The position numbers and the translations under genes were made by a program. From Taylorella equigenitalis ATCC 35865 (GTDB lineage: Bacteria > Pseudomonadota > Gammaproteobacteria > Burkholderiales > Burkholderiaceae_B): a DNA stretch of 64,000 bases. The DNA is taken from assembly GCF_000276685.1 (NCBI RefSeq), contig NC_018108.1, positions 744,001 to 808,000 of the forward strand, in the 5' to 3' direction. Positions within the stretch are counted from its first letter, which is position 1. Each line of letters starts with the position of its first letter. The notes beneath the pieces are model-generated. The model had not been told where the DNA came from. It did not search any database and saw only the letters and a program-made list of their open reading frames with translations. Below are positions 18,901-30,008 of this stretch, one piece after another.

Positions 18901-20382
18901 ATGGCTATAACAATTACAAAAACCCTTTCAATTATTGCTCTTGAAGCTTATGAAGTTAACATTGAAGTTCATTCAAGCAAGGGCTTACCAACCTTTAAGG
19001 TAGTGGGTGTTCAGGATTCACTTGCACGTGAGAGCAGAGAGCGTGTTAGGTCGGCATTGCTAAATCAGGGATTTAAGTTTTCAGCCAGTAGATATACTGT
19101 GAACTTAGGTTTAAGTATGCAAAATAAGATAGAGGGTAATTATGATTTGGGAATAGCGATTGGATTGCTATTTAGTACTTCGCAAATAAACTTACATCCA
19201 AATTTAAAACTTCAAAATATTTATTTTGTTTCTGATTTGTCTCTTTCAGGAGAGTTAAATTCTATTAATCACTTAGAAGTTTTAGCCCTAAAAATTCATA
19301 GTATTAATCCAAATCCTACGTTAGTTATTTCTGCATCCCTTTCATGGATAGTAGAGTATGCACCGAATATAAATTTTGTTTTTGCGAAAAACCTTAAGCA
19401 AGTAGTTGAATATCTACAAACTGGTGAGCCTCCTAACTATGAAAAAAATATATCTTCGTATTTTTGTATACCTTCAAATGCAAATTGTCTTTCAGAAGTG
19501 GAGGGATTGCATGAGGCTTGTTACGCCCTAGAGGTTGCTTCTTCGGGTGGTCATAATATGGTCGTTGGAGGGGCAACTGGTATAGGAAAGACTATGTTAT
19601 GTAGGCGAGCTACGGGAATATTGCCCCCATTTAATAATAGGGAGTTTTTGGAAGTTTTGTCTATTTATAAGCTTGCCCAAGTTAATCCACCTAATGATAT
19701 ACCATATAGAAATCCATTATCTACTATGAGTGTTTCTGTTTTAAGTGGTAATAATCAACAAAATTATGTGGGAGAATTTTCTCTTGCACATAATGGTGTC
19801 CTGCATATTGATGATCTTCAAAATGCAAATCTTGAATTTATGGAAACTATAAGGATGGCAACGATGCATAGGATAGTAAATCAATTCAGATCTAAGCAAA
19901 AAGTGGTGTTGCCAGCTAATTTTTTATTTCTCGGAACCTATCAGCCATGTGATTGTTCTTATCTTTACTCAAATAAATGTAGATGCACAAAAACTATCTT
20001 GATGAAATATGAAAAAAAGATGGAGACTCTTTTTAGGGAAGTTTTTGATATTCACGTAAGAATTAATGGTGGACTTGAAAGCATAATCCAACCGAACAAT
20101 ACTTCTGAAGAGGTGCGAAAAAGGGTGATTAAAGCTAGAGAGAGTCAAATTCAAAGGCAGGGTAGGTTAAATGCACATCTAGATGAAGAGGAATTACCTA
20201 AATATGCATATATCGATTCCAATTCTAATGAACTTATATTAAAACTAAAACAGGGTCGCAATATTTCTCAAAAATCCCTAATGCGAATTTTAAGAGTTGC
20301 CCGAACAATTGCCGATTTAGAAGAAAATAGACACATTAGCCCTTCAAATTTAAGCAAGGCAATTTATTTATATGGATATTAG
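18901..20382 (+). CDS. comM: ComM/YifB-like AAA+ protein, divergent
   Basis: 493 residues, close to the usual ~500. The N-terminal Lon-like domain (KGLPTFKVVGVQDSLARESRE) and the central Mg-chelatase-type AAA+ domain are clear, with Walker A GGATGIGKTML near residue 225 and zinc-like cysteines in PCDC and CRC. ComM is a hexameric helicase that extends branch migration when transformed DNA is integrated. Several motifs are altered: Walker B reads LHIDDLQ where relatives have FLDELP, the sensor-1 segment is YQPC instead of NPC, and the arginine of LLDRIDLHV is missing in the matching VFDIHV. The ATPase may be weakened. Family membership is clear; full activity is doubtful. Confidence 0.85.
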   Translation: MAITITKTLSIIALEAYEVNIEVHSSKGLPTFKVVGVQDSLARESRERVRSALLNQGFKFSASRYTVNLGLSMQNKIEGNYDLGIAIGLLFSTSQINLHPNLKLQNIYFVSDLSLSGELNSINHLEVLALKIHSINPNPTLVISASLSWIVEYAPNINFVFAKNLKQVVEYLQTGEPPNYEKNISSYFCIPSNANCLSEVEGLHEACYALEVASSGGHNMVVGGATGIGKTMLCRRATGILPPFNNREFLEVLSIYKLAQVNPPNDIPYRNPLSTMSVSVLSGNNQQNYVGEFSLAHNGVLHIDDLQNANLEFMETIRMATMHRIVNQFRSKQKVVLPANFLFLGTYQPCDCSYLYSNKCRCTKTILMKYEKKMETLFREVFDIHVRINGGLESIIQPNNTSEEVRKRVIKARESQIQRQGRLNAHLDEEELPKYAYIDSNSNELILKLKQGRNISQKSLMRILRVARTIADLEENRHISPSNLSKAIYLYGY

Positions 20383-20507
20383 TTATCGATTTAAATAACT
20401 GGCAGTTATAAAGAAATAAATATTTTGTATTGTTTCAGTATATGCAATATGTTCCTTCTTTGCTAATATTATTTAAACAAACATTTAAACAAAAGTGAGG
20501 ATTCATT

Positions 20508-21299
20508 ATGAAAAAATTTATAACTTCTACAGCTTTTGCTTTGGTCGCATCTGTTGCGAGCATTGCATCTGCAGAAAATTTAAAACTTTCGGTTGCGGCT
20601 ACTCCAGTTCCTGCCGCAGAAGTATTAGAATTTATGAAACCTGCACTTGCTAAAAAAGGTGTTGATTTAACGGTTCATGTGTTTACTGACTATATCCAGC
20701 CTAATCAGCAAGTAGCTGATGGTGACATTGATATGAACTGTTTTCAGCACGTTCCACATTTAGATTCTTTTAATAAACGTAAAAATACTAATCTTGTACC
20801 AGTTGGTGGTATGTACCTTCCTCCTATGGCCGCTTACTCTAAAAAGATTAAAAACCTATCTGAATTAAAAGATGGGGCTAGAGTTTCTATACCAAATGAC
20901 ACTACCAACAGTACTCGTGCTCTTCTGATTCTTCAACAAGCAGGATTAATCAAGCTTAAAGACCCTAAAAATTTATTTTCAACAGCTAAAGATATAGCCG
21001 AGAATCCTAAAAAACTAAAATTTATAGAATTGGAAGCAGCTGGAGTGCCACGTTCATTGCCAGATGTGGACCTAGCGGTTATTAATACTAATTATGCACT
21101 TGAGGTTGGATTAAATCCTAAGTCAGACTCTATAATTCTAGAAGACGTTAATTCTCCATACGCTAATGTATGTGCCGCTCCTGAAAGTTTTAAAGATAAT
21201 AAAGCACTTAAAATCTTAGTAGCTGAGTGGGGTAGTGAAGAAACTAAGAAATTCATTTTAGATAAGTACAAAGGAACCGTAATTCCACGTAAAGACTAA
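20508..21299 (+). CDS. metQ: MetQ/NlpA-family substrate-binding protein
   Basis: 263 residues. A signal peptide (residues 1-22) ends SIASA before ENLKLSVAATPVP. The family motifs VFTDYIQPNQQVADGDIDMNCFQHVPHLD and ISIPNDTTNSTRAL-like RVSIPNDTTNSTRALLILQ are shortened here; both are typical of D/L-methionine binding proteins. Relatives are usually lipoproteins, but no lipobox cysteine is visible, so this one is probably free in the periplasm. It is a single gene with a good ribosome site (AAAGTGAGG) and no metN or metI beside it, so it must work with an ABC transporter encoded elsewhere. The methionine ligand is inferred from family; related amino acids or peptides are possible. Confidence 0.88.
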   Translation: MKKFITSTAFALVASVASIASAENLKLSVAATPVPAAEVLEFMKPALAKKGVDLTVHVFTDYIQPNQQVADGDIDMNCFQHVPHLDSFNKRKNTNLVPVGGMYLPPMAAYSKKIKNLSELKDGARVSIPNDTTNSTRALLILQQAGLIKLKDPKNLFSTAKDIAENPKKLKFIELEAAGVPRSLPDVDLAVINTNYALEVGLNPKSDSIILEDVNSPYANVCAAPESFKDNKALKILVAEWGSEETKKFILDKYKGTVIPRKD

Positions 21300-21392
21300 G
21301 CTTTATTTTGCATGTAACCTCTTTGAAACATATATTTTTTTGTAAAATTGTAAAATTGTTAGATTGTCATTTAAAGACGCAAGGGGGTTTAC

Positions 21393-22844
21393 ATGCGACT
21401 AGGACTTTTAGCATCCACTACAAATTTTAAAACAGCTACTTGGACATTAGTCGAAGGGCTAAGCAGTGGGGCTAATTATTTTGAGATTCCACAAGAATTT
21501 CTAACAGCACTTCCTCCTTCAGATTCTCCCGATACTTTTGATAACCCTATTATTTGTTTATCTAGAGAAAAACAAAAGTCCAATACAGACCATAAAACTA
21601 GGTATTCTATTGGTCTAACTTTGTATGTTTCTACTAGACAAATCGATAGTAACAAAAGCGGGATGTATTATGGAGCATTTTGGGAGGGACAGGAAGAGCA
21701 ATTTTTTAGTCCTAAAAGATTGCCCATAGCTATAGAAACCCTTAAATCGATGGCAGCATATGTAAGAGATGCATATGTAGAATCTAACTCAAATAGTTTT
21801 TCAGAAAAACCATTTATCAAAGAGTTTCCTGATGAAATAGGAGATGATCTCAAGACCATGGATTCTAGGTTTCTTGAGTCCATTAAGTTTAGCGAATCTA
21901 TATCTCCTAAAGATGCAGACCGCACATGTGTTATCGGATGCTCGAAAAAATCAAACATACCTGATGCTATTGAAACCATCATAGACTACAAGATGCTTGC
22001 TTTGTATAAAAGAATTTATTTTGTATCTAATCAGATTTTCGATAGATTTAAAAGAATTCAAAATTATTTCGAAAGTAAAAATTTTGAAGCAACTGTTGGT
22101 ACGAATTTAACTTTACTTAGATATGAGGATCTAAAAGCAGTTAAAAATATTTACTTAGATAGCATAGGGTCAGTAGAGGCGGTTATAAGTACTTATACAA
22201 AAAGACTTCGTCAAAAAGATGAAGCATACCAGCTTCTTAAAAACAACCAAACTCAGCAGATTTCAAACCTTACTTCAGAATATGAATCCAAAATTAAGAA
22301 TTTGGAATCTGACCTTGAAGCTTCAAAACAGGCTTTAGCAGACTCAGTTCCAGCCACTTCCAGCTCTAATATATCAGAAGATTCAGCTTGTGAGCTTACT
22401 TCTAATACGTCAGAAGATTCAGCTTGTGAATTAACTTCAAACATAAGCTCAACTGATTATTCTACTGGGGATTCAACCGTATCGGTACCAGATATTCATT
22501 CAGATACAGTTAGGGGACGGGAGCTTGAAGAGCATTTGTCCAGTGAGCAATGGAATCAATTGAGAAATTTATTTGGTTTAGAGCCGACGGATTCTTGTCA
22601 GGTACTTCATCAAAAGCTTATTAACTTTTCAAATGAATCAAATAAACATATTGATGAAATGGATGTAAAAATGTCAGAACTGTCTACAAAACTAGCAGAC
22701 AGAGAATCTAGACTTCTTGAATTGGAAAATGCTCCCGCACCAGATCATATAGTTCAATCAGCACGTAGAGGATTTAATATATCAACGTTTTTACTAATGC
22801 TTTTAGTAATTGCATTAGTGGCTTATATTTTGATTAATCGCTAG
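21393..22844 (+). CDS. Unknown tail-anchored protein with coiled-coil segments
   Basis: 483 residues; family not recognised. No N-terminal signal is present. Residues 1-250 look globular (YYGAFWEGQEEQ, a Cys pair in TCVIGC). Residues ~265-310 form a coiled coil (YTKRLRQKDEAYQLL, then EYESKIKNLESDLEASKQAL). A low-complexity Ser/Thr/Asp stretch at ~315-370 contains two tandem copies of a 12-residue unit (SEDSACELTSN plus one). A second coiled coil lies at ~415-445. The last 20 residues are one membrane helix (FLLMLLVIALVAYILI) followed by NR, so the bulk should face the cytoplasm. AAGGGGG lies before the ATG. Its 3' end overlaps spoT by 11 bases in convergent orientation. Confidence 0.75.
   Translation: MRLGLLASTTNFKTATWTLVEGLSSGANYFEIPQEFLTALPPSDSPDTFDNPIICLSREKQKSNTDHKTRYSIGLTLYVSTRQIDSNKSGMYYGAFWEGQEEQFFSPKRLPIAIETLKSMAAYVRDAYVESNSNSFSEKPFIKEFPDEIGDDLKTMDSRFLESIKFSESISPKDADRTCVIGCSKKSNIPDAIETIIDYKMLALYKRIYFVSNQIFDRFKRIQNYFESKNFEATVGTNLTLLRYEDLKAVKNIYLDSIGSVEAVISTYTKRLRQKDEAYQLLKNNQTQQISNLTSEYESKIKNLESDLEASKQALADSVPATSSSNISEDSACELTSNTSEDSACELTSNISSTDYSTGDSTVSVPDIHSDTVRGRELEEHLSSEQWNQLRNLFGLEPTDSCQVLHQKLINFSNESNKHIDEMDVKMSELSTKLADRESRLLELENAPAPDHIVQSARRGFNISTFLLMLLVIALVAYILINR
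22374..22445 (+). repeat. Two tandem 36-bp units inside the tail-anchored gene
   Basis: Units 22374-22409 and 22410-22445 both start TCAGAAGATTCAGCTTGTGA and encode SEDSACELTSN plus one residue. The period of 36 keeps the reading frame, so copy number could vary between strains without breaking the gene. Confidence 0.85.
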
Positions 22845-25089
22845 ATTGGGTGAGGTTAGGTCTAGTAACTGACATAACCTCAGGTATTCTTCTTATATCC
22901 GACATGATGGCTCTTAATTGAGCCAGGTCTTCAAGCTGAAGCGTTATATTGATATTAGCTGAATCACTATCTTCATCAATCATTGATAAATTCGAGATAT
23001 TGGAATCATGTTTTGAAGCTTCGAGGGCTATAGAACCTAATACACCTTTGCTGTTCATAACTGAAATTAAAACTTTAGCTTTAAAACTTGCTTCTGAAGT
23101 GCTGTCCCAAACAACATTTACATATTTACTTTGATCTTTAGTTTTATAGGCTTCAAGTGTTGTGCAATTTTTGTGGTGAACAATTAAACCTGACCCAGGC
23201 TGAAGAACTCCAACTATAGGGTCTCCGTGTAATGGAGTACAACATCTAGCATACTGTATTGCCTGACCTTCATTTCCTCTAATAATCAAGTCAGTACGTT
23301 TCGCAGACACTAAGGTGTCGTAATCATTTGCACTTGTGTGGATAATAGGATTTTCTGCCATAAACCTTCTAGCTACTACAGAGGCGATGCGATTTCCAAT
23401 TCCAATATCCATAAGAATCTCTTCAATTGAGTTCGCTCCAGATTCTAAAAGAATTTTTTGCCATTTAGGATCATTTGGCTCTGGCAATGTTAACTCCAAC
23501 TCATCCAAAGACTGTACGAGTAATTTACGCCCCAAGTCTGTGGACTCCTTGCTTTTAACATTTTTAAGGTAGTGTCTAATGGCCGCCCTAGATCTACCTG
23601 TGCGTGCATAGTTAAGCCAACTTACATTAGGTTCAGTATTTGGATTAGAAACAATATCAACTGTATCTCCGCTAGAAATCACATGATTCATAGGAACAGC
23701 AACACCGTTTATTGTCGCACTAACTGCATGTAGACCAATATCAGTGTGTATCGCAAATGCAAAATCCAAAGCCGTAGCTTTACTAGGAAGAGAAATAATT
23801 TTTCCTTTTGGTGTAAGTGCATATACAGAATCTGGGAAAAGGTCAATCTTAATATCATCTATAAACTCTTCGGAATTTTTATTTATAGATTGAATTTCAA
23901 CCAAGGATTGAAGCCAGTTGTGGGATTGCTCATCGAAATTAACAACACCAATATCCTGATCACGATTTCTCCAATGAGCAATAATCCCATATTCGTTATA
24001 GGCTTTCATAGATTCTGTATAGATGGCAACGTCGATATGGGTTCCAACAGGTCCTACCATTATCGTGTGCAAAGCACGGTACCCATTTACTTTAGGAATA
24101 GCGATGTAATCTGCAAAAGTCCCAGGAACTGGTCTGTAAATTTGATGTAAAGCACCAAGGACAATGTACGCATCTTTTAAAGTAGGTACTGTAATGTCGA
24201 TATATTTCGTATCGTTAAAATTTGAAAAACTCTTTTTTTGAGCTTTCATCATCTCATGTACTTTGTAGGTACTAAAGACGGTCCAATTAAATTTAGCTTC
24301 CGAAGGAATAGCTTTAACTATATTGTTATGGATTGTTTTTTCAATTTTGCGATTAGATTTGCGCTCAGTTTCAATAGAATTTTTAAGCACACTATATCTA
24401 TGTGGATAATTGATACTAAATGCTAAATCCTCAAATTCAGCTACTAGCTTAGTAAATCCCAGTCTATTTGCTATCGCTGCGTAAATTTCAAGTGTCTCTT
24501 TGGCAATGCGTCTAGCCTTCGATGCTTCAAGCCCTTCAAGAGTACGCATATTGTGCAATCGATCGGCTAGTTTAATCAAGATCACCCGAACATCCTTAGT
24601 TGTAGCAAGCAACATCTTTCTAAAACTCTCTGCTTGTTGCTGTGCTTTACTAGCAAATTGAATCCTCTCTAATTTAGTTAGCCCATCAACTAATTCTGCA
24701 ACTGTAGGATTTATTTCGGTGGCAATTGTTTCTTTTGAAACTTGTTGATCCTCAATCACATCATGCAACAATGCAGCCATAATGGCATCGCAGTCAAGCT
24801 TCCAATCAGCACAAATAATTGCCGCTTCCACTGGATGGGTAATATAAGGATCACCACTTGATCTCATCTGACCATAATGTGCATTATCTGCAAAGGAATA
24901 AGCCACTTTAACCATATGTAGCTCAGATGGATTTAGATACTTAAGTTTGCTTAAAAGGGAAGGTAGATACTTTGGGTGAGGTGAAGACTTAATATCAGGT
25001 AATTCTGAATTATGAGGTTCAGCAACCCTTTTTTTTGAAGGAAAAGGATTTAAGTTAGAAAAGAGAGAGGATAAATTACTGAACCTCAT
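22834..25089 (-). CDS. spoT: RelA/SpoT-homologue (RSH), hydrolase intact, synthetase site degenerate
   Basis: 751 residues in full RSH layout. The HD hydrolase domain (~45-200) keeps HYGQMRSSGDPYITHP, LLHDVIED and ADRLHNMRTLEG, so it should degrade (p)ppGpp. The synthetase domain (~250-370) keeps DYIAIPKVNGYRALHT but has lost other active-site signatures: the RxKxxYSI segment reads FSTYKVHE, the DxxxxR segment reads DTKYID, and EVQIRT reads DVAIYT. TGS (~400-460) and C-terminal ACT (~675-745) domains are present. It is the last gene of a six-gene minus-strand operon after rpoZ. The protein is probably a hydrolase with regulatory domains. Whether any synthesis remains needs testing. Confidence 0.92.
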   Translation of the reverse strand: MRFSNLSSLFSNLNPFPSKKRVAEPHNSELPDIKSSPHPKYLPSLLSKLKYLNPSELHMVKVAYSFADNAHYGQMRSSGDPYITHPVEAAIICADWKLDCDAIMAALLHDVIEDQQVSKETIATEINPTVAELVDGLTKLERIQFASKAQQQAESFRKMLLATTKDVRVILIKLADRLHNMRTLEGLEASKARRIAKETLEIYAAIANRLGFTKLVAEFEDLAFSINYPHRYSVLKNSIETERKSNRKIEKTIHNNIVKAIPSEAKFNWTVFSTYKVHEMMKAQKKSFSNFNDTKYIDITVPTLKDAYIVLGALHQIYRPVPGTFADYIAIPKVNGYRALHTIMVGPVGTHIDVAIYTESMKAYNEYGIIAHWRNRDQDIGVVNFDEQSHNWLQSLVEIQSINKNSEEFIDDIKIDLFPDSVYALTPKGKIISLPSKATALDFAFAIHTDIGLHAVSATINGVAVPMNHVISSGDTVDIVSNPNTEPNVSWLNYARTGRSRAAIRHYLKNVKSKESTDLGRKLLVQSLDELELTLPEPNDPKWQKILLESGANSIEEILMDIGIGNRIASVVARRFMAENPIIHTSANDYDTLVSAKRTDLIIRGNEGQAIQYARCCTPLHGDPIVGVLQPGSGLIVHHKNCTTLEAYKTKDQSKYVNVVWDSTSEASFKAKVLISVMNSKGVLGSIALEASKHDSNISNLSMIDEDSDSANINITLQLEDLAQLRAIMSDIRRIPEVMSVTRPNLTQSSD

Positions 25090-25104
25090 AAAATCGCAAG
25101 AAAA

Positions 25105-25311
25105 CTATGAAGGGATTTTTTTAAGCATCTCAATGCCAGTTTTGCCCTCTGCAATTTCACGTAAAGCTAATACTGTAGGCTTGTCGTTTTGAAGATCCAC
25201 TTTAGGTGTATGACCAGTAGCAATTTCACGTGCTCTATAAGTAGCAACCAAAGTTAAATCAAAACGATTAGGGATATATTCTAAACAATCATCTATGGTA
25301 ATACGAGCCAT
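25105..25311 (-). CDS. rpoZ: RNA polymerase omega subunit
   Basis: 68 residues with the omega N-terminus [28 protein letters not shown] shortened here to its key parts: [19 protein letters not shown] and ALREIAEG. Omega helps fold the beta-prime subunit and forms part of the site where ppGpp binds RNA polymerase. It lies 15 bases after gmk and 15 bases before spoT, the conserved gmk-rpoZ-spoT order of proteobacteria, so guanylate supply, the ppGpp target and ppGpp turnover are expressed together. The length is slightly short for the family but complete. Confidence 0.95.
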
Positions 25312-25326
25312 AAGTAACCTATATTT

Positions 25327-25959
25327 TTATTTTGGTAAGTACGAAATACCTAGATCTGCAAACAATGCTTGATGCTTATTTGCTTGACTTGCATACTTAA
25401 GTTTAGCGGCTTTTACTAAGGTATCAAGTTGATCTAAAGCACTCTCAAAGCAATCATTTATTATAACATAAGAGTACTCATCAGCATGACCAATTTCACT
25501 GCTAACTGTAAGCATTCTTTTGCGAATTACATCAGCTGTATCTTGACCTCGTTTTATAAGCCTTTTTTCTAATTCTTCTATAGAGGGTGGCAATATAAAA
25601 ATATCTATGATTTCAGGAAATTTTTTGCGAATTTGACGGGCTCCTTGATAGTCAATTTCAAGCAATACATCCTGACCAGTTTCTATAACTGCTTCAACTT
25701 GAGACTTAGCAGTGCCATAGAAATTACCGTAAACTTCAGCCCATTCAAGCATATTTCCCTGTTCACGCCATTGAGAAAATTGCTCTTTTGAGATGAAATG
25801 ATACTCGCGACCATCAATTTCTCCCTCACGAGGAGCTCTAGTCGTGTATGAAATAGATAAGTTTATAAATGGATTTTTTTCAATAAGAGCACTTACTAAA
25901 CTCGATTTTCCTGCACCAGTAGGGGCGGAAACTAAAAAAACATTTCCAGGGAATTCCAT
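25327..25959 (-). CDS. gmk: Guanylate kinase
   Basis: 210 residues. P-loop SAPTGAGKSSLV at ~9-20, the GMP-binding segment YTTRAPREGEIDGREYHF at ~38-55, and LEIDYQGARQIRKKFP at ~98-113 are all standard. It phosphorylates GMP to GDP with ATP in the cytoplasm. Ten bases separate it from the upstream phoH-like gene and 15 from rpoZ. All visible catalytic residues are conserved and the length is normal. Confidence 0.97.
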   Translation of the reverse strand: MEFPGNVFLVSAPTGAGKSSLVSALIEKNPFINLSISYTTRAPREGEIDGREYHFISKEQFSQWREQGNMLEWAEVYGNFYGTAKSQVEAVIETGQDVLLEIDYQGARQIRKKFPEIIDIFILPPSIEELEKRLIKRGQDTADVIRKRMLTVSSEIGHADEYSYVIINDCFESALDQLDTLVKAAKLKYASQANKHQALFADLGISYLPK

Positions 25960-25968
25960 ATTTAAATA

Positions 25969-27606
25969 TTACAAAGCATCACTTGCGTAATCTGATAATC
26001 TAGAGCGCTCGCCTTTTTGTAAAGTTACATGTCCTGAGTGTGGCCAACCCTTAAACCTGTCCACGACATATGTTAGACCAGAACTGCCCTCAGTCAAATA
26101 AGGAGTGTCTATTTGGGCAATATTCCCCAAACACACGATTTTAGTACCAGGACCTGCACGTGTAACCAATGTCTTCATTTGTTTTGGTGTAAGGTTTTGA
26201 GCTTCATCAATAATGATAAATTTATTCAAAAAAGTTCGACCGCGCATAAAGTTTAAGGATTTTACCTTAATGTGAGACTGAATTATCTCTTTACTTAAAC
26301 TTCGCTCCCATTGAGCTCCACTATCTTGACGTGCCTTAGTGTTTAAAAACTCAAGATTATCTTCTAAGGCACCCATCCAAGGTTGCATTTTTTCTTCCTC
26401 TGTCCCTGGTAGAAATCCGATATCTTCACCTACAGGCACAGTTACACGGGTCATTATGATTTCTGTATATCTCTTTGTTTCAAGTACCTGCGTTAGACCA
26501 GAGGCTAGGGCTAGCAATGTTTTACCTGTACCAGCTTGCCCAAGTAATGACACAAAGTCTATTTCTGGATTCATTAAAAGGTTAAGTGCAAAATTTTGTT
26601 CACGATTTCTAGCTGTCACACCCCAAACATTATTTTTGGGGTGCGTGTAGTCACGTATGGTTGCTAGTACGGCATATTTACCAGAAACTTCTTTAACTTG
26701 AGCAAATAATGGTGAGTCTCCCTCTAAGTAAACGAATTCATTTACTAAGAATTCATTTACTAATGGACCGCGAACTTTATAATACGTGGTCCCTGCTTGT
26801 GTCCAAGATTCCATATCTTTTGAGTGTCTTTCCCAGAAATTATCGGGAAGTTGGATATTTCCGTCATATATTAAATCGGAATCCTCGACAGAATGGTCAT
26901 TTAGATAATCTTCAGCGGCAAGACCTAAAGCCCTAGCTTTTAAGCGCATGTTTATATCTTTGGAAACAAGAACAACTTCGCGGTCAGGGTAGAGGTTAAC
27001 CAAAGATTGAACCACACTTAATATTTGATTATCAGCCTTAAGGGTAGGGAGTTGTATTTTTAGTTCCGCATTTAACTCTTTAGTTTGAAAATACAAAATG
27101 CCAGTAGCTTCTTTGTTACCCAAACTATTAAGTGGCATGCCCTGAAGTAGATCTGGAGATTCTGCACAAAGATCATCTAAAGATCTACTTACTTGACGTG
27201 CATGTCGAGCAACTTCTGTAAGTCCCTTTTTATGGTGGTCAAGCTCTTCCAAAGTCATCATGGGTAAGAAAATATCGTGCTCTTCAAACCTAAATAAGCA
27301 TGTAGGGTCGTGCAACATTACGTTAGTGTCTAGAACAAAGAGCTTACTTTTGCCAGTTGATTCTTTGGTTTTGTTTGTTATTGTTGATTCCTTACCTTGA
27401 ACTTTTTTAGTAGCTTTAGATCTCTGCGTTTTCGATGTGGCTTGAGCATCTCTAGTTTCAATGGTCTGAGTAGATTTAGCCTCAAAAGATATCCCAGATT
27501 GTGTATTCTGTTCTTGATGAGTAATTTTTTTAGGAGCCCTTGGTTTGGGAGCAGTGTCCATATCAAGAAGATTTGCACGTTTAGTGGGAAGTTTAGGAAG
27601 AGGCAT
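25969..27606 (-). CDS. PhoH-family ATPase with N-terminal PIN domain
   Basis: 545 residues. A charged, Thr/Lys-rich N-terminal tail of ~90 residues is followed by a PIN-type nuclease fold (KLFVLDTNVMLHDP, then TLEELDHHKKG) and then the PhoH ATPase with Walker A LLGQAGTGKTLLALA near residue 360, GFLPGTEEEKMQPW, and Walker B FIIIDEAQNLTPKQMK. PIN-PhoH proteins act on RNA as combined ribonuclease and helicase in the cases studied; the cellular target is unknown. It is third in the six-gene operon, between bcp and gmk, a position seen in other betaproteobacteria as far as I recall. Confidence 0.92.
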   Translation of the reverse strand: MPLPKLPTKRANLLDMDTAPKPRAPKKITHQEQNTQSGISFEAKSTQTIETRDAQATSKTQRSKATKKVQGKESTITNKTKESTGKSKLFVLDTNVMLHDPTCLFRFEEHDIFLPMMTLEELDHHKKGLTEVARHARQVSRSLDDLCAESPDLLQGMPLNSLGNKEATGILYFQTKELNAELKIQLPTLKADNQILSVVQSLVNLYPDREVVLVSKDINMRLKARALGLAAEDYLNDHSVEDSDLIYDGNIQLPDNFWERHSKDMESWTQAGTTYYKVRGPLVNEFLVNEFVYLEGDSPLFAQVKEVSGKYAVLATIRDYTHPKNNVWGVTARNREQNFALNLLMNPEIDFVSLLGQAGTGKTLLALASGLTQVLETKRYTEIIMTRVTVPVGEDIGFLPGTEEEKMQPWMGALEDNLEFLNTKARQDSGAQWERSLSKEIIQSHIKVKSLNFMRGRTFLNKFIIIDEAQNLTPKQMKTLVTRAGPGTKIVCLGNIAQIDTPYLTEGSSGLTYVVDRFKGWPHSGHVTLQKGERSRLSDYASDAL

Positions 27607-27626
27607 AAAAACTCCGTTTTGGTTAA

Positions 27627-28121
27627 TTAATTTTGTGATTCAATAACATTAAGAACTTCTTCGATGTGGCCAGGAACTTTAACTCCTCTCCACTCTTTTA
27701 TAAGTTTCCCTTTATCATCGAATATAAATGTTGATCTTTCGATACCATGAACTTGCTTTCCGTACATCATTTTTTGTTTCATAACTCCGAATAAGTTGCA
27801 GATTTCTTCTTCAGGGTCGGCAATAAGAGGGAAATTAAGTTCTTGTTTATCGATAAATTTTTTGTGCGAGTTAATGGTATCTCTGGAAATGCCTATGACT
27901 ACGGCTTCTTGAGATTCAAACCTATCAAGTGCATCTCTAAAATCTTGTGATTCTGTAGTGCAACCTGGGGTGTTATCGCGTGGGTAAAAATAAAGTACAA
28001 ATGATTTACCTTTTAGGTCAGAGGGGAATTTAAGGTTTTTTTCTATAAATTCATCACCTTCTTTATAAACTAAGTTTGCTGTAAATGCAGGACATTTTTT
28101 TAATTCAAGATTTTCTGCCAT
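27627..28121 (-). CDS. bcp: Bcp-type thiol peroxidase (peroxiredoxin Q)
   Basis: 164 residues with the thioredoxin fold. The peroxidatic cysteine lies in DNTPGCTTESQDFRD (about residue 54). In the common E. coli type a resolving cysteine follows five residues later; here that position is Gln. Two other cysteines (KKCPAF near the start, EEEICNLFGV near 110) are possible partners, or the enzyme works as a 1-Cys type. It reduces hydrogen peroxide and organic hydroperoxides in the cytoplasm. The start shares one base with the stop of the upstream gene, so both are translated from one mRNA. Confidence 0.93.
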   Translation of the reverse strand: MAENLELKKCPAFTANLVYKEGDEFIEKNLKFPSDLKGKSFVLYFYPRDNTPGCTTESQDFRDALDRFESQEAVVIGISRDTINSHKKFIDKQELNFPLIADPEEEICNLFGVMKQKMMYGKQVHGIERSTFIFDDKGKLIKEWRGVKVPGHIEEVLNVIESQN

Positions 28122-28564
28122 TAGGACTCCTTAAATTCTAAAATTAAACCTAATGCAACTTTACGACCTTCGGCCATTAATACATTATATGTACGAGCAG
28201 CTGCATCAGTTTTCATAAATTCAACTCCAATATTTGCTTTAATCAGAGGAGTTATTAAGGAAGGGTCAGGTAAATGTTGCTTTAAACCTGTTCCGATAAT
28301 TATAAGTTCAGGTGCATTTTTATAGTTACAAGAGGAACTGTTAAGAAAGTCAATTGCGGAACTAGCTGCTTTTTCCAACATGCCTACAAGTTCCAATTGA
28401 TTGATATCAATATCTTCAAATGATTTGATATCCCATGTGTGGATAGGACTTTCTGGCGTAAAGTAAACCGATTGAAAATATCTCTCTTTATTGATTTCGA
28501 TGTAGGATTCATCGTAAGCAGTTACTGTGTTTAGTGTAGAGGTATTTTGTAAGTGTAATTTCAC
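28121..28564 (-). CDS. Mth938/Xcc1710-like protein (DUF498)
   Basis: 147 residues. The family signature is the central LIIIGTGLKQHLPDPSLITPL (here given in parts: LIIIGTG, then HLPDPSL) followed by GVEFMKTDAAARTYNVLMAEGR and VALGLIL near the C-terminus. Proteins of this fold are small and cytoplasmic; the human relative NDUFAF3 is a complex I assembly factor, but the bacterial role is not settled. It is the first gene of the minus-strand operon running to spoT and is divergent from hom across 115 bases, where both promoters must lie. Confidence 0.85.
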   Translation of the reverse strand: MKLHLQNTSTLNTVTAYDESYIEINKERYFQSVYFTPESPIHTWDIKSFEDIDINQLELVGMLEKAASSAIDFLNSSSCNYKNAPELIIIGTGLKQHLPDPSLITPLIKANIGVEFMKTDAAARTYNVLMAEGRKVALGLILEFKES

Positions 28565-28679
28565 AATTACTCCGAAAACTTTGTTTATATTAAGTCAAAT
28601 ATATTACAAGTTCGTGATTTTAAAAAAGGTAAAATTGTGAATACTTATAACAATTTCTAAAGTTTTTTGTGGGTTTTAA

Positions 28680-29993
28680 ATGAGTCAATTACAAGCTTTG
28701 AGAGTAGGATTGCTTGGTTTTGGTGTTGTTGGTAGTGGCACTTGGAATGTACTTAAGAGGAATTCCAACGAAATTGCTCGTCGAGCTGGGAGGCGTATTG
28801 AGATTGTGCGTATTGCCACCCGTACTATTTCTAAAGCTACTGATATAGTCGGGGATGCCGTTCCTGTTACTGCTAATCTTATGGATGTAGTTGACGATCC
28901 GTCTATAGATATTGTTGTAGAGCTTATTGGAGGCACAACTTTAGCTAAAGAGGTGGTTATTAGAGCCTTGAATAATGGGAAGCATGTAGTAACCGCTAAT
29001 AAGGCTTTGCTTGCACATCATGGAAACGAAATTTTTAAAATTGCAAGTGATCATAAAGTTATGGTCGCCTTTGAAGCAGCTGTGGCTGGTGGAATTCCTA
29101 TAATTAAATCTGTCCGAGAAGGGCTAACCGCAAATCGAATTCAAAGTTTGGCAGGAATTATTAATGGAACTAGTAATTTCATTCTCTCTGAGATGCGTAG
29201 CAAGGCACTTACATTTGATGTTGTTTTAAAAGATGCACAGAAACTAGGTTATGCAGAAGCAGATCCTACATTTGATATCGAGGGTGTGGATGTTGCTCAC
29301 AAACTTACAATCTTAGCTTCCACTGCGTTTGGTATACCGATTCAATTTGACCGTGTCTACTCTGAGGGTATTACCAAAATAGAACAAGAAGATGTTGTTC
29401 AAGCCGAGAGATTGGGCTATAGGTTGAAATTATTAGGTATTGCCACTCGTAGAGATGAGGGGATTGAGTTACGCGTACATCCCACTTTGATACCAGCTAC
29501 TAAGATGTTGGCAAATGTTGAAGGTGCTATGAATGCAGTGATGGTCAGAGGAGATGCTGTAGGAGAAACTTTGTTTTATGGTCCTGGAGCAGGTTCTGAA
29601 CCTACGGCATCTGCAGTTGTTGCTGATTTGGTAGATGTTACACGTCTGCATACAGCAGATCCTGAACATCGTGTTCCGCACCTAGCATTTCAGGCTGATG
29701 CTCTAGAGGATTATCGCATTCTGCCTATCGATGAGGCGAGGACTGGGTACTATCTACGTATGACAGTGAGAGACCAAAAAGGTGTGCTGGCAGATGTTTC
29801 TCGAATTTTTGCAAATCATGAGATTTCAATTAATTCAATGATTCAGGATAATAAGGGAAATAATCTTGCATCTTTAATTTTCTTAATTCATCAAACCATT
29901 GAGTCCTCTATGCAAAAAGCCATTAAAGAGATTGAAGCACTTGATTCCGTGCAGTCAGATATTAAACTTATTAGATTGGAAAATCTTTGTTAA
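28680..29993 (+). CDS. hom: Homoserine dehydrogenase
   Basis: 437 residues. Nucleotide-binding GLLGFGVVGSGTW at ~8-20, catalytic-domain motifs NKALLAHHG near 103 and AGIINGTSNFIL near 158, and KLGYAEADPTFDIEGVDVAHK near 190 are all present. A C-terminal ACT domain (~350-430, DQKGVLADVSRIF) suggests feedback control by threonine. The enzyme reduces aspartate semialdehyde to homoserine. Fifteen bases separate it from thrC, so the two form a threonine operon. thrB is absent from this cluster. Length and motifs are normal. Confidence 0.96.
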   Translation: MSQLQALRVGLLGFGVVGSGTWNVLKRNSNEIARRAGRRIEIVRIATRTISKATDIVGDAVPVTANLMDVVDDPSIDIVVELIGGTTLAKEVVIRALNNGKHVVTANKALLAHHGNEIFKIASDHKVMVAFEAAVAGGIPIIKSVREGLTANRIQSLAGIINGTSNFILSEMRSKALTFDVVLKDAQKLGYAEADPTFDIEGVDVAHKLTILASTAFGIPIQFDRVYSEGITKIEQEDVVQAERLGYRLKLLGIATRRDEGIELRVHPTLIPATKMLANVEGAMNAVMVRGDAVGETLFYGPGAGSEPTASAVVADLVDVTRLHTADPEHRVPHLAFQADALEDYRILPIDEARTGYYLRMTVRDQKGVLADVSRIFANHEISINSMIQDNKGNNLASLIFLIHQTIESSMQKAIKEIEALDSVQSDIKLIRLENLC

Positions 29994-30008
29994 TTTAGGG
30001 ACAAGTTT

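What the first reader, a model, noticed from the sequence alone, without database searches (positions are those of the whole stretch)
22834..25089. SpoT with an intact hydrolase but apparently ruined (p)ppGpp synthetase site
The HD motifs are complete, but in the synthetase domain the RxKxxYSI, DxxxxR and EVQIRT segments read FSTYKVHE, DTKYID and DVAIYT. Several residues that bind or transfer pyrophosphate are therefore gone, while DYIAIPK and NGYRALHT remain. This would be a hydrolase-only long RSH, so alarmone production would depend on another gene or have been lost.
Basis: partly seen in the sequence, partly recalled or inferred. Interest (0 to 1): 0.5.

Follow-up and report, generated by a model that had tools for sequence, protein, structure and literature searches.

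The report
SpoT that lost its alarmone-making site
A bacterial enzyme that normally both makes and destroys the starvation signal ppGpp appears to have kept only the destroying half, leaving its sister enzyme RelA as the only likely maker, and the same loss seems to have happened several separate times in related bacteria.

Summary
Window 22834-25089 (-) is the spoT of a gmk-rpoZ-spoT cluster. All 12 HD positions checked are intact. The synthetase domain has lost the residues equivalent to RelTt R249, K251, R277, E345, Q347 and R349, but keeps D272, Y329 and most of the G-loop. Of near-invariant columns, 19 of 47 are lost in the synthetase domain against 3 of 58 in HD. The sister species (87% identical) has the same losses. 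Its nearest kin, which include a Pelistega MAG, are intact.

Alarmone production is probably not lost: a separate RelA in the same genome has every catalytic position tested. The pseudo-domain is still under purifying selection, so it is probably kept as structure or regulator.

Hydrolase-only SpoT ("SpoT[Hs]") is already known, from Moraxellaceae. This is an independent origin in Betaproteobacteria and not the only one. I found degenerate SpoT synthetase domains in five lineages of the order (28 genomes). RelA is intact in all 25 of those where it could be read, and six genomes in which only SpoT was found have an intact SpoT. Two of the five lineages (g365, g83) are less certain losses. No biochemistry was possible.

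The parts
22834..25089 (-). spoT, 751 aa long RSH (HD, pseudo-SYNTH, Core, TGS, helical, ZFD/RIS, ACT)
24475..24942 (-). HD hydrolase domain, residues about 50-205, active-site residues intact
23962..24303 (-). pseudo-synthetase domain, residues about 263-376; 19 of 47 near-invariant columns lost
24262..24282 (-). former ATP motif, residues 270-276 (R249 to T270, K251 to F272, S255 to K276 in RelTt register)
24196..24213 (-). DTKYID, residues 293-298; D272 kept (D293), R277 replaced (D298)
24049..24111 (-). G-loop block, residues 327-347, largely retained (12 of 15 near-invariant columns)
24016..24033 (-). DVAIYT, residues 353-358; E345 to D353, Q347 to A355, R349 to Y357
23824..23961 (-). Core region, residues about 377-422, strongly diverged on the lineage stem
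23638..23823 (-). TGS domain, residues about 423-484
22852..23637 (-). helical, ZFD/RIS and ACT domains, residues about 485-746; CC and HxxxC of the ZFD kept
25105..25311 (-). rpoZ (omega), 68 aa, begins MAR; upstream neighbour that marks the spoT locus
25327..25959 (-). gmk, guanylate kinase

Best explanation
This SpoT is a (p)ppGpp hydrolase whose synthetase domain no longer makes alarmone and is kept as a structural or regulatory pseudo-domain. RelA, encoded elsewhere in the genome, is the only likely (p)ppGpp synthetase, so synthesis and hydrolysis are fully split between two proteins. Shown here by sequence: loss of ATP-binding and catalytic residues, intact HD, intact RelA, purifying selection on the pseudo-domain, loss before the two genomes' lineages split but after they parted from their nearest kin. 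Inferred: absence of synthetase activity, presence of hydrolase activity, and the scaffold role (by analogy with A. baumannii SpoT, where activities were measured).
For: Residue losses against 192 SpoTs. Same losses in the sister genome G001, none in G002-G006 of the same genus. RelA catalytic set intact. Saturated synonymous change (pS 0.72) with pN 0.075 and 88.6% identity in the pseudo-SYNTH, close to RelA's pseudo-HD at 87.1%; SpoT HD 93.6% and RelA SYNTH 94.8% mirror each other. Identity to four same-genus kin falls to 48% in SYNTH (91% among the kin) but only to 71% in HD (80%); RelA SYNTH stays at 80% (89%). The same split recurs in four other lineages, with intact RelA in all 25 genomes where both proteins could be read. 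Known precedent with biochemistry: PMC9974481.
Against: No activity was measured. D272, Y329 and the K/N/H of the G-loop are kept, and A. baumannii SpoT lost the first two, so some residual nucleotide binding or weak activity is not excluded. Core, ZFD and ACT also changed fast on the stem, which could mean broad relaxation rather than specialisation. The structure model is of middling quality (pTM 0.49) and gives no evidence for or against catalysis.
Confidence: 0.85

Rival explanations
1. The synthetase domain is catalytically dead but still binds guanine nucleotides through its retained G-loop and uses them to tune the hydrolase (a nucleotide-sensing pseudoenzyme).
For: G-loop block keeps 12 of 15 near-invariant columns against 17 of 34 in the rest of SYNTH (Fisher 0.064); the separate g8 lineage shows 13-14 of 15 against 20-23 of 34 (Fisher 0.019 to 0.17). 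D293, K333, N335, Y337, H341 all kept.
Against: The split was chosen after seeing the data and no single test is strong. K326 of kin is A here and E in the sister. Lineage g80 has a gap in place of the G-loop, so it is not generally needed. A. baumannii SpoT does not bind GDP (PMC9974481).
Confidence: 0.15
2. SpoT still has a weak or altered synthetase activity in spite of the substitutions.
For: The Asp of DxxxxR and the Tyr of NGY remain. In lineage g83 an altered but uniform set (K298, Q353, H355) is kept in 14 of 14 genomes readable through the motif, which could mean an altered activity there.
Against: Here both ATP-side arginines, the lysine, and the E/Q/R of the last strand are replaced (T, D, F, D, A, Y), and they stay replaced in both genomes.
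Confidence: 0.08
3. The whole spoT gene is decaying and neither domain matters much.
For: Stem divergence is high in Core, ZFD and ACT too. The genome also carries a small HD protein resembling alarmone hydrolases.
Against: Open frame with pN/pS of about 0.12 over the whole gene and 93.6% identity in HD while synonymous sites are saturated.
Confidence: 0.03
4. Sequencing or alignment artefact.
For: None found.
Against: Separate genome G001 shows the same residues; motifs align without shift against 192 rows.
Confidence: 0.01

Closest known systems
Moraxellaceae SpoT[Hs], e.g. Acinetobacter baumannii SpoT (PDB 7qpr; PMC3153485, PMC9974481, PMC12742793)
   Same: SpoT-type long RSH with functional HD, pseudo-SYNTH kept in place, separate RelA; PMC9974481 measured hydrolase yes, synthetase no. 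The top Foldseek hit of the full-length model is 7qpr, though with TM only 0.40. Both genomes also carry a small alarmone-hydrolase-like protein (SahA in PMC12742793; L020 here).
   Different: Independent origin: the window's gene sits among intact Alcaligenaceae SpoTs. Different residues: per PMC9974481 A. baumannii lost D272 (S263) and Y329 (N304), which are kept here; Q347 is T there and A here; R277 is E there and D here; R249 is K there and T here.
Bifunctional SpoT[HS], e.g. E. coli SpoT
   Same: gmk-rpoZ-spoT order and the same domain order.
   Different: E. coli SpoT has all 13 SYNTH positions tested; this protein has lost six of the strongly conserved ones and the variable S255.
RelA[hS]
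   Same: Mirror image: one catalytic domain dead but kept as a constrained pseudo-domain.
   Different: The opposite domain is dead; the RelA here lacks the HD residues and has intact SYNTH.

Membership tests
SpoT[Hs] as a functional class (hydrolase-only SpoT) | SpoT orthologue with long-RSH domain order | tested here: met
   gmk-rpoZ upstream
SpoT[Hs] as a functional class (hydrolase-only SpoT) | intact HD active site | tested here: met
   12 of 12 positions
SpoT[Hs] as a functional class (hydrolase-only SpoT) | loss of residues critical for synthesis | tested here: met
   R249, K251, R277, E345, Q347, R349 replaced; D272 and Y329 kept
SpoT[Hs] as a functional class (hydrolase-only SpoT) | separate synthetase-competent RelA in the genome | tested here: met
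   by residues only
SpoT[Hs] as a functional class (hydrolase-only SpoT) | measured hydrolase activity and no synthetase activity | not testable with these tools
   needs bench work
SpoT[Hs] as a functional class (hydrolase-only SpoT) | compact tau-shaped state with folded Core | tested here: inconclusive
   model pTM 0.49, residues 381-418 under pLDDT 50; 7qpr is the top Foldseek hit but TM only 0.40
Moraxellaceae SpoT[Hs] lineage | shared descent with Moraxellaceae SpoT | tested here: not met
   placed with same-genus SpoTs that have intact SYNTH, inside Alcaligenaceae (94/87, 97/84); no Moraxellaceae row was in the trees
Bifunctional SpoT[HS] | catalytic SYNTH residues present | tested here: not met
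NCBIfam TIGR00691 RelA/SpoT family | score above curated cut-off 499.2 | tested here: met
   615.8 bits; NF008303 (bifunctional SpoT equivalog) 655.7 is under its cut-off of 947, but intact betaproteobacterial SpoTs were not scored against it

The most novel reading that the evidence does not exclude
Losing SpoT's synthetase is a recurrent specialisation allowed wherever RelA is kept: about five separate times in this one order, with the dead domain seen at several stages, from point losses (g365, g83), through a constrained pseudo-domain with a retained guanine loop that may act as a nucleotide sensor (this lineage and g8), to near-total erosion (g80). The sensor part of this reading is the boldest and least supported.
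Probability: 0.15. Interest if true: 0.65.

Novelty: new variant of a known kind. Interest (0 to 1): 0.45.

Why it matters
PMC9974481 (passage) places hydrolase-only SpoT in Moraxellaceae and calls SpoT in other Beta- and Gammaproteobacteria bifunctional; PMC3153485 (passage) says more loosely that SpoT is largely bifunctional with some monofunctional hydrolases, with Moraxellaceae as its worked example. Repeated independent loss in Betaproteobacteria would turn one example into a rule that can be tested. It would mean that in these bacteria RelA alone raises ppGpp, and that starvation signals usually credited to SpoT (recalled: carbon, fatty acid, iron) could act only by slowing hydrolysis. 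It also gives natural material for asking what a dead synthetase domain does for the hydrolase.

Tried and rejected
Pseudogene or assembly error: rejected, since G001 shows the same state and pS is saturated with low pN. Shared loss with g8 (about 0.8 Mb genomes): not favoured. The tree puts the two apart, AU test p 0.0173 against joining them (the group was named after the tree was seen and long branches are in play), and replaced residues differ; intact same-genus kin G002-G006 point the same way. The branch that joins this lineage to its genus is 94/87 (not starred) and, for the five-row set, 97/84. Class-wide screen with a degenerate DNA pattern for the DxYGFR motif: useless, only 159 of 370 genomes matched, so absence says nothing. 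Rfam scan of 20000-30000: nothing at gathering threshold. My first residue table had key positions off by one to two; one search replaces it, while the invariant-column counts do not depend on it.

Paper searches, seen as titles and starts of abstracts only: (3 papers), Taylorella with ppGpp (0), SpoT with pseudo-synthetase (2), (2,828 papers, 10 listed), Kinetoplastibacterium with ppGpp (0), SpoT with hydrolase-only (3), (12), SpoT with Pelistega (3), (4). None of the listed ones shows a hydrolase-only SpoT in Betaproteobacteria; this covers an open-access library only.

Rows left out: for the AF2 alignment L042 and L063 were dropped after one search failed on a stop codon in L042's reference; 28 rows were used, of 80 named loci plus the window. 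The family sample had 141 genomes: 137 SpoTs read, 4 not (G027, 75% complete, best match only 1.2e-64; G187, SpoT over three frames; G152 and G189, no match). In the family of G112, G587 is cut just after the R277 position, where it still has R; the other six unread genomes gave only SpoT pieces without the motif or were not fetched. G018 had one PF04607 match but two matches to SpoT, so I did not count it as lacking RelA; its SpoT (L229) is intact.
Full report
What is there. Window 22834-25089 on the minus strand is one open frame of 751 codons. It matches HD_4, RelA_SpoT, TGS, RelA_AH_RIS and ACT_4 in the order of long RSHs, and TIGR00691 above its cut-off. Upstream on the same strand lie rpoZ (25105-25311, 68 aa, starting MAR) and gmk (25327-25959), the gene order of E. 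coli gmk-rpoZ-spoT. So it is the spoT orthologue.

Source. The genome held is one contig of 1,732,123 bases; window G+C is 37.3%. Its genus in the collection also holds a 1.6 Mb genome with an 87% identical SpoT (G001) and five of 2.2-2.9 Mb, one of which (G005) is identical over 4,041 bases to a MAG titled Pelistega sp. (L022). Passages of PMC3250509 and PMC4028982 give Taylorella two species with genomes of 1.5-1.7 Mb and 37-38% G+C, and name Taylorella and Pelistega together as near kin of the isolate described there. I infer Taylorella, probably T. equigenitalis; no call names the window's organism.

The synthetase site. RelTt numbers and the roles of R249, D272, R277, Y329 and Q347 are from PMC9974481 (results section, parts 1 and 2 of 4 read); K251, S255, E345 and R349 are my extension of that register. 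In the window R249 is T270, K251 F272, S255 K276, R277 D298, E345 D353, Q347 A355 and R349 Y357; D272 (D293), Y329 (Y337) and the K, N, G, H of the G-loop stay. Each lost position is held by 188-191 of 192 others, except S255, which varies (S 99, G 82, A 11). Of columns at least 97% invariant, 19 of 47 are lost in SYNTH and 3 of 58 in HD (Fisher 1.6e-5). The 19 are also lost in the sister. E. coli SpoT differs at 5 of the 47 and 5 of the 58. The 12 HD positions tested are all kept.

Is it maintained. Between the window and G001 synonymous sites are saturated (pS 0.73 over the gene), while pN is 0.062 in HD and 0.075 in the pseudo-SYNTH, with overlapping bootstrap ranges of dN. Amino-acid identity is 93.6% in HD and 88.6% in pseudo-SYNTH; in RelA it is 94.8% in SYNTH and 87.1% in the dead HD. 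The two proteins mirror each other: of the two catalytic domains, the live one is more conserved and the dead one is still well constrained. Against four same-genus kin (G002, G004-G006), identity is HD 70.8 (79.7 among the kin), SYNTH 48.2 (90.6), Core 47.3 (88.0), TGS 59.7 (80.1), ZFD 35.5 (76.9), ACT 34.0 (71.1); RelA SYNTH 80.1 (88.8). So there was a burst on the stem in the synthetase and regulatory parts, with constraint afterwards.

Who makes the alarmone. PF04607 finds two places in the genome, SpoT and a 753-codon RelA at G000:C1:524,285-526,543. That RelA has all 12 catalytic positions tested and a degenerate HD. DksA, a Ppx/GppA protein and a 143-aa HD_4 protein most like a (p)ppApp hydrolase (PDB 7smg, 4.8e-24) are also present. 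So the alarmone system looks intact, with RelA as the only long synthetase.

How special is it. The 80 named loci have the catalytic set (one, L062, has NSY for NGY), and so do 131 of 137 family genomes read. The six exceptions are this lineage's two and four genomes of about 0.8 Mb in genus g8, which lost a different set (R249 N/S, K251 D in three, D272 N in three, R277 T/S/N/I, E345 K). In a sample of one genome from each of 48 other families of the order, 45 are intact, one has a single change (H341Q), and two are degenerate: G112 and G109. In both, an open frame that reads as rpoZ lies directly upstream, and in G112 one that reads as gmk before it (by eye). Their families were then sampled. 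In the family of G109 (21 genomes), 5 of 5 of genus g80 have a gap in place of the G-loop and have lost nearly every catalytic position (the alignment there is loose) while keeping 12 of 12 HD positions; 3 of 3 of genus g365 have D272 to E, R277 to L and E345 to D; the other 13 are intact, one of them (G562) read without its HD part. In the family of G112 (21 genomes, one genus, g83), 14 of 14 readable through the motif have R277 to K, E345 to Q and Q347 to H; a fifteenth, G587, is cut after the R277 position and has R there. On a tree from HD, hinge and TGS columns these states need five changes. g80 has long branches and odd composition, so its place is unsure, and g365 and g83 are less certain losses of function.

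The link with RelA. Of 28 genomes with a degenerate SpoT SYNTH (2 + 4 + 5 + 3 + 14), RelA could be fully read in 25, and all 25 have the full catalytic set. The other three: G568 cut by a contig end (the three positions before the cut intact), G593 not fetched, G594 with no RelA in the stretch fetched. Conversely, in six genomes (G044, G073, G086, G089, G097, G107; 93-100% complete) both searches found a single long RSH, SpoT, and it is intact in all six. Genomes are not independent, so no p-value is given, and a missing RelA in an incomplete genome is weak evidence.

Structure. AlphaFold2 on 28 rows gave mean pLDDT 74.6, pTM 0.49, with Core and part of the G-loop under 50. The N-terminal half matches Rel catalytic halves (8acu, Z 37.0, 1.6 A over 329 residues). 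Foldseek's first full-length hit is A. baumannii SpoT 7qpr, with TM 0.40. The synthetase fold is therefore predicted to persist; the tau-shape is not shown.

Mechanism. Shown: residue losses, intact HD, intact RelA, constraint. Inferred from PMC9974481 by analogy: the protein hydrolyses (p)ppGpp, does not make it, and the dead domain with Core, TGS and the C-terminal parts holds HD in a hydrolysing state. The retained G-loop (12 of 15 columns here, 13-14 of 15 in g8, against 17 of 34 and 20-23 of 34 in the rest; Fisher 0.064 here, 0.019-0.17 in g8) hints at retained guanine binding; the split was chosen after seeing the data, and g80 shows it is no general need.

Known or new. SpoT[Hs] was described for Moraxellaceae in 2011 (PMC3153485, passages seen), solved and assayed in PMC9974481, and taken up in A. 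baumannii genetics in PMC12742793 (passages). PMC9974481 states that SpoT in other Beta- and Gammaproteobacteria is bifunctional (passage). This is the same kind reached independently, with different residues lost, and it recurs in the order.

Noticed in passing
L254, L255, L247 (G013, G130, G171) and L245, L246, L256: In three genomes of about 0.8 Mb (genus g8; probably trypanosomatid endosymbionts, recalled from size only) the RelA frame is cut to 308-345 codons with intact SYNTH and no C-terminal sensor half, and SpoT ends after TGS (525-528 codons). Two further g8 genomes gave no RSH match.
   Followed up: partly
L320-L324 (genus g80: G109, G556, G563, G569, G574): SpoT loci with perfect HD residues but a synthetase domain with the G-loop missing; in G109 it is below Pfam recognition (the only one scanned). 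Three of five frames are only 472-484 codons.
   Followed up: partly
L344-L357 (genus g83, family f41): SpoT with a uniform altered catalytic set (R277K, E345Q, Q347H) in 14 of 14 genomes readable through the motif; such uniformity could mean altered rather than lost activity.
   Followed up: partly
L337-L339 (genus g365): SpoT with D272E, R277L and E345D in 3 of 3 genomes while 13 genomes of other genera of the family are intact.
   Followed up: partly
L020:1465-1896 (-), G000:C1:1251500-1251883: Small 143-aa HD_4 protein close to a solved (p)ppApp hydrolase; nearby, by eye, tRNA-like sequence and an integrase-like open frame. A SpoT query finds it in the window's genome but not in G001.
   Followed up: partly
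21393-22844 (+): 483-aa protein without Pfam or NCBIfam match at E 0.001; by eye a Ser/Thr/Glu repeat-like stretch and a likely C-terminal membrane helix. Its 3' end overlaps that of spoT by 11 bases, convergent.
   Followed up: no
G187:C4:355273-357208: spoT-like matches spread over three frames in a 94% complete genome; frameshifts, real or from assembly.
   Followed up: no
G044:C1:269548-271644 (L221): 0.9 Mb genome (93% complete) in which only SpoT was found, with all catalytic synthetase residues, and no RelA: the opposite choice to g8.
   Followed up: yes
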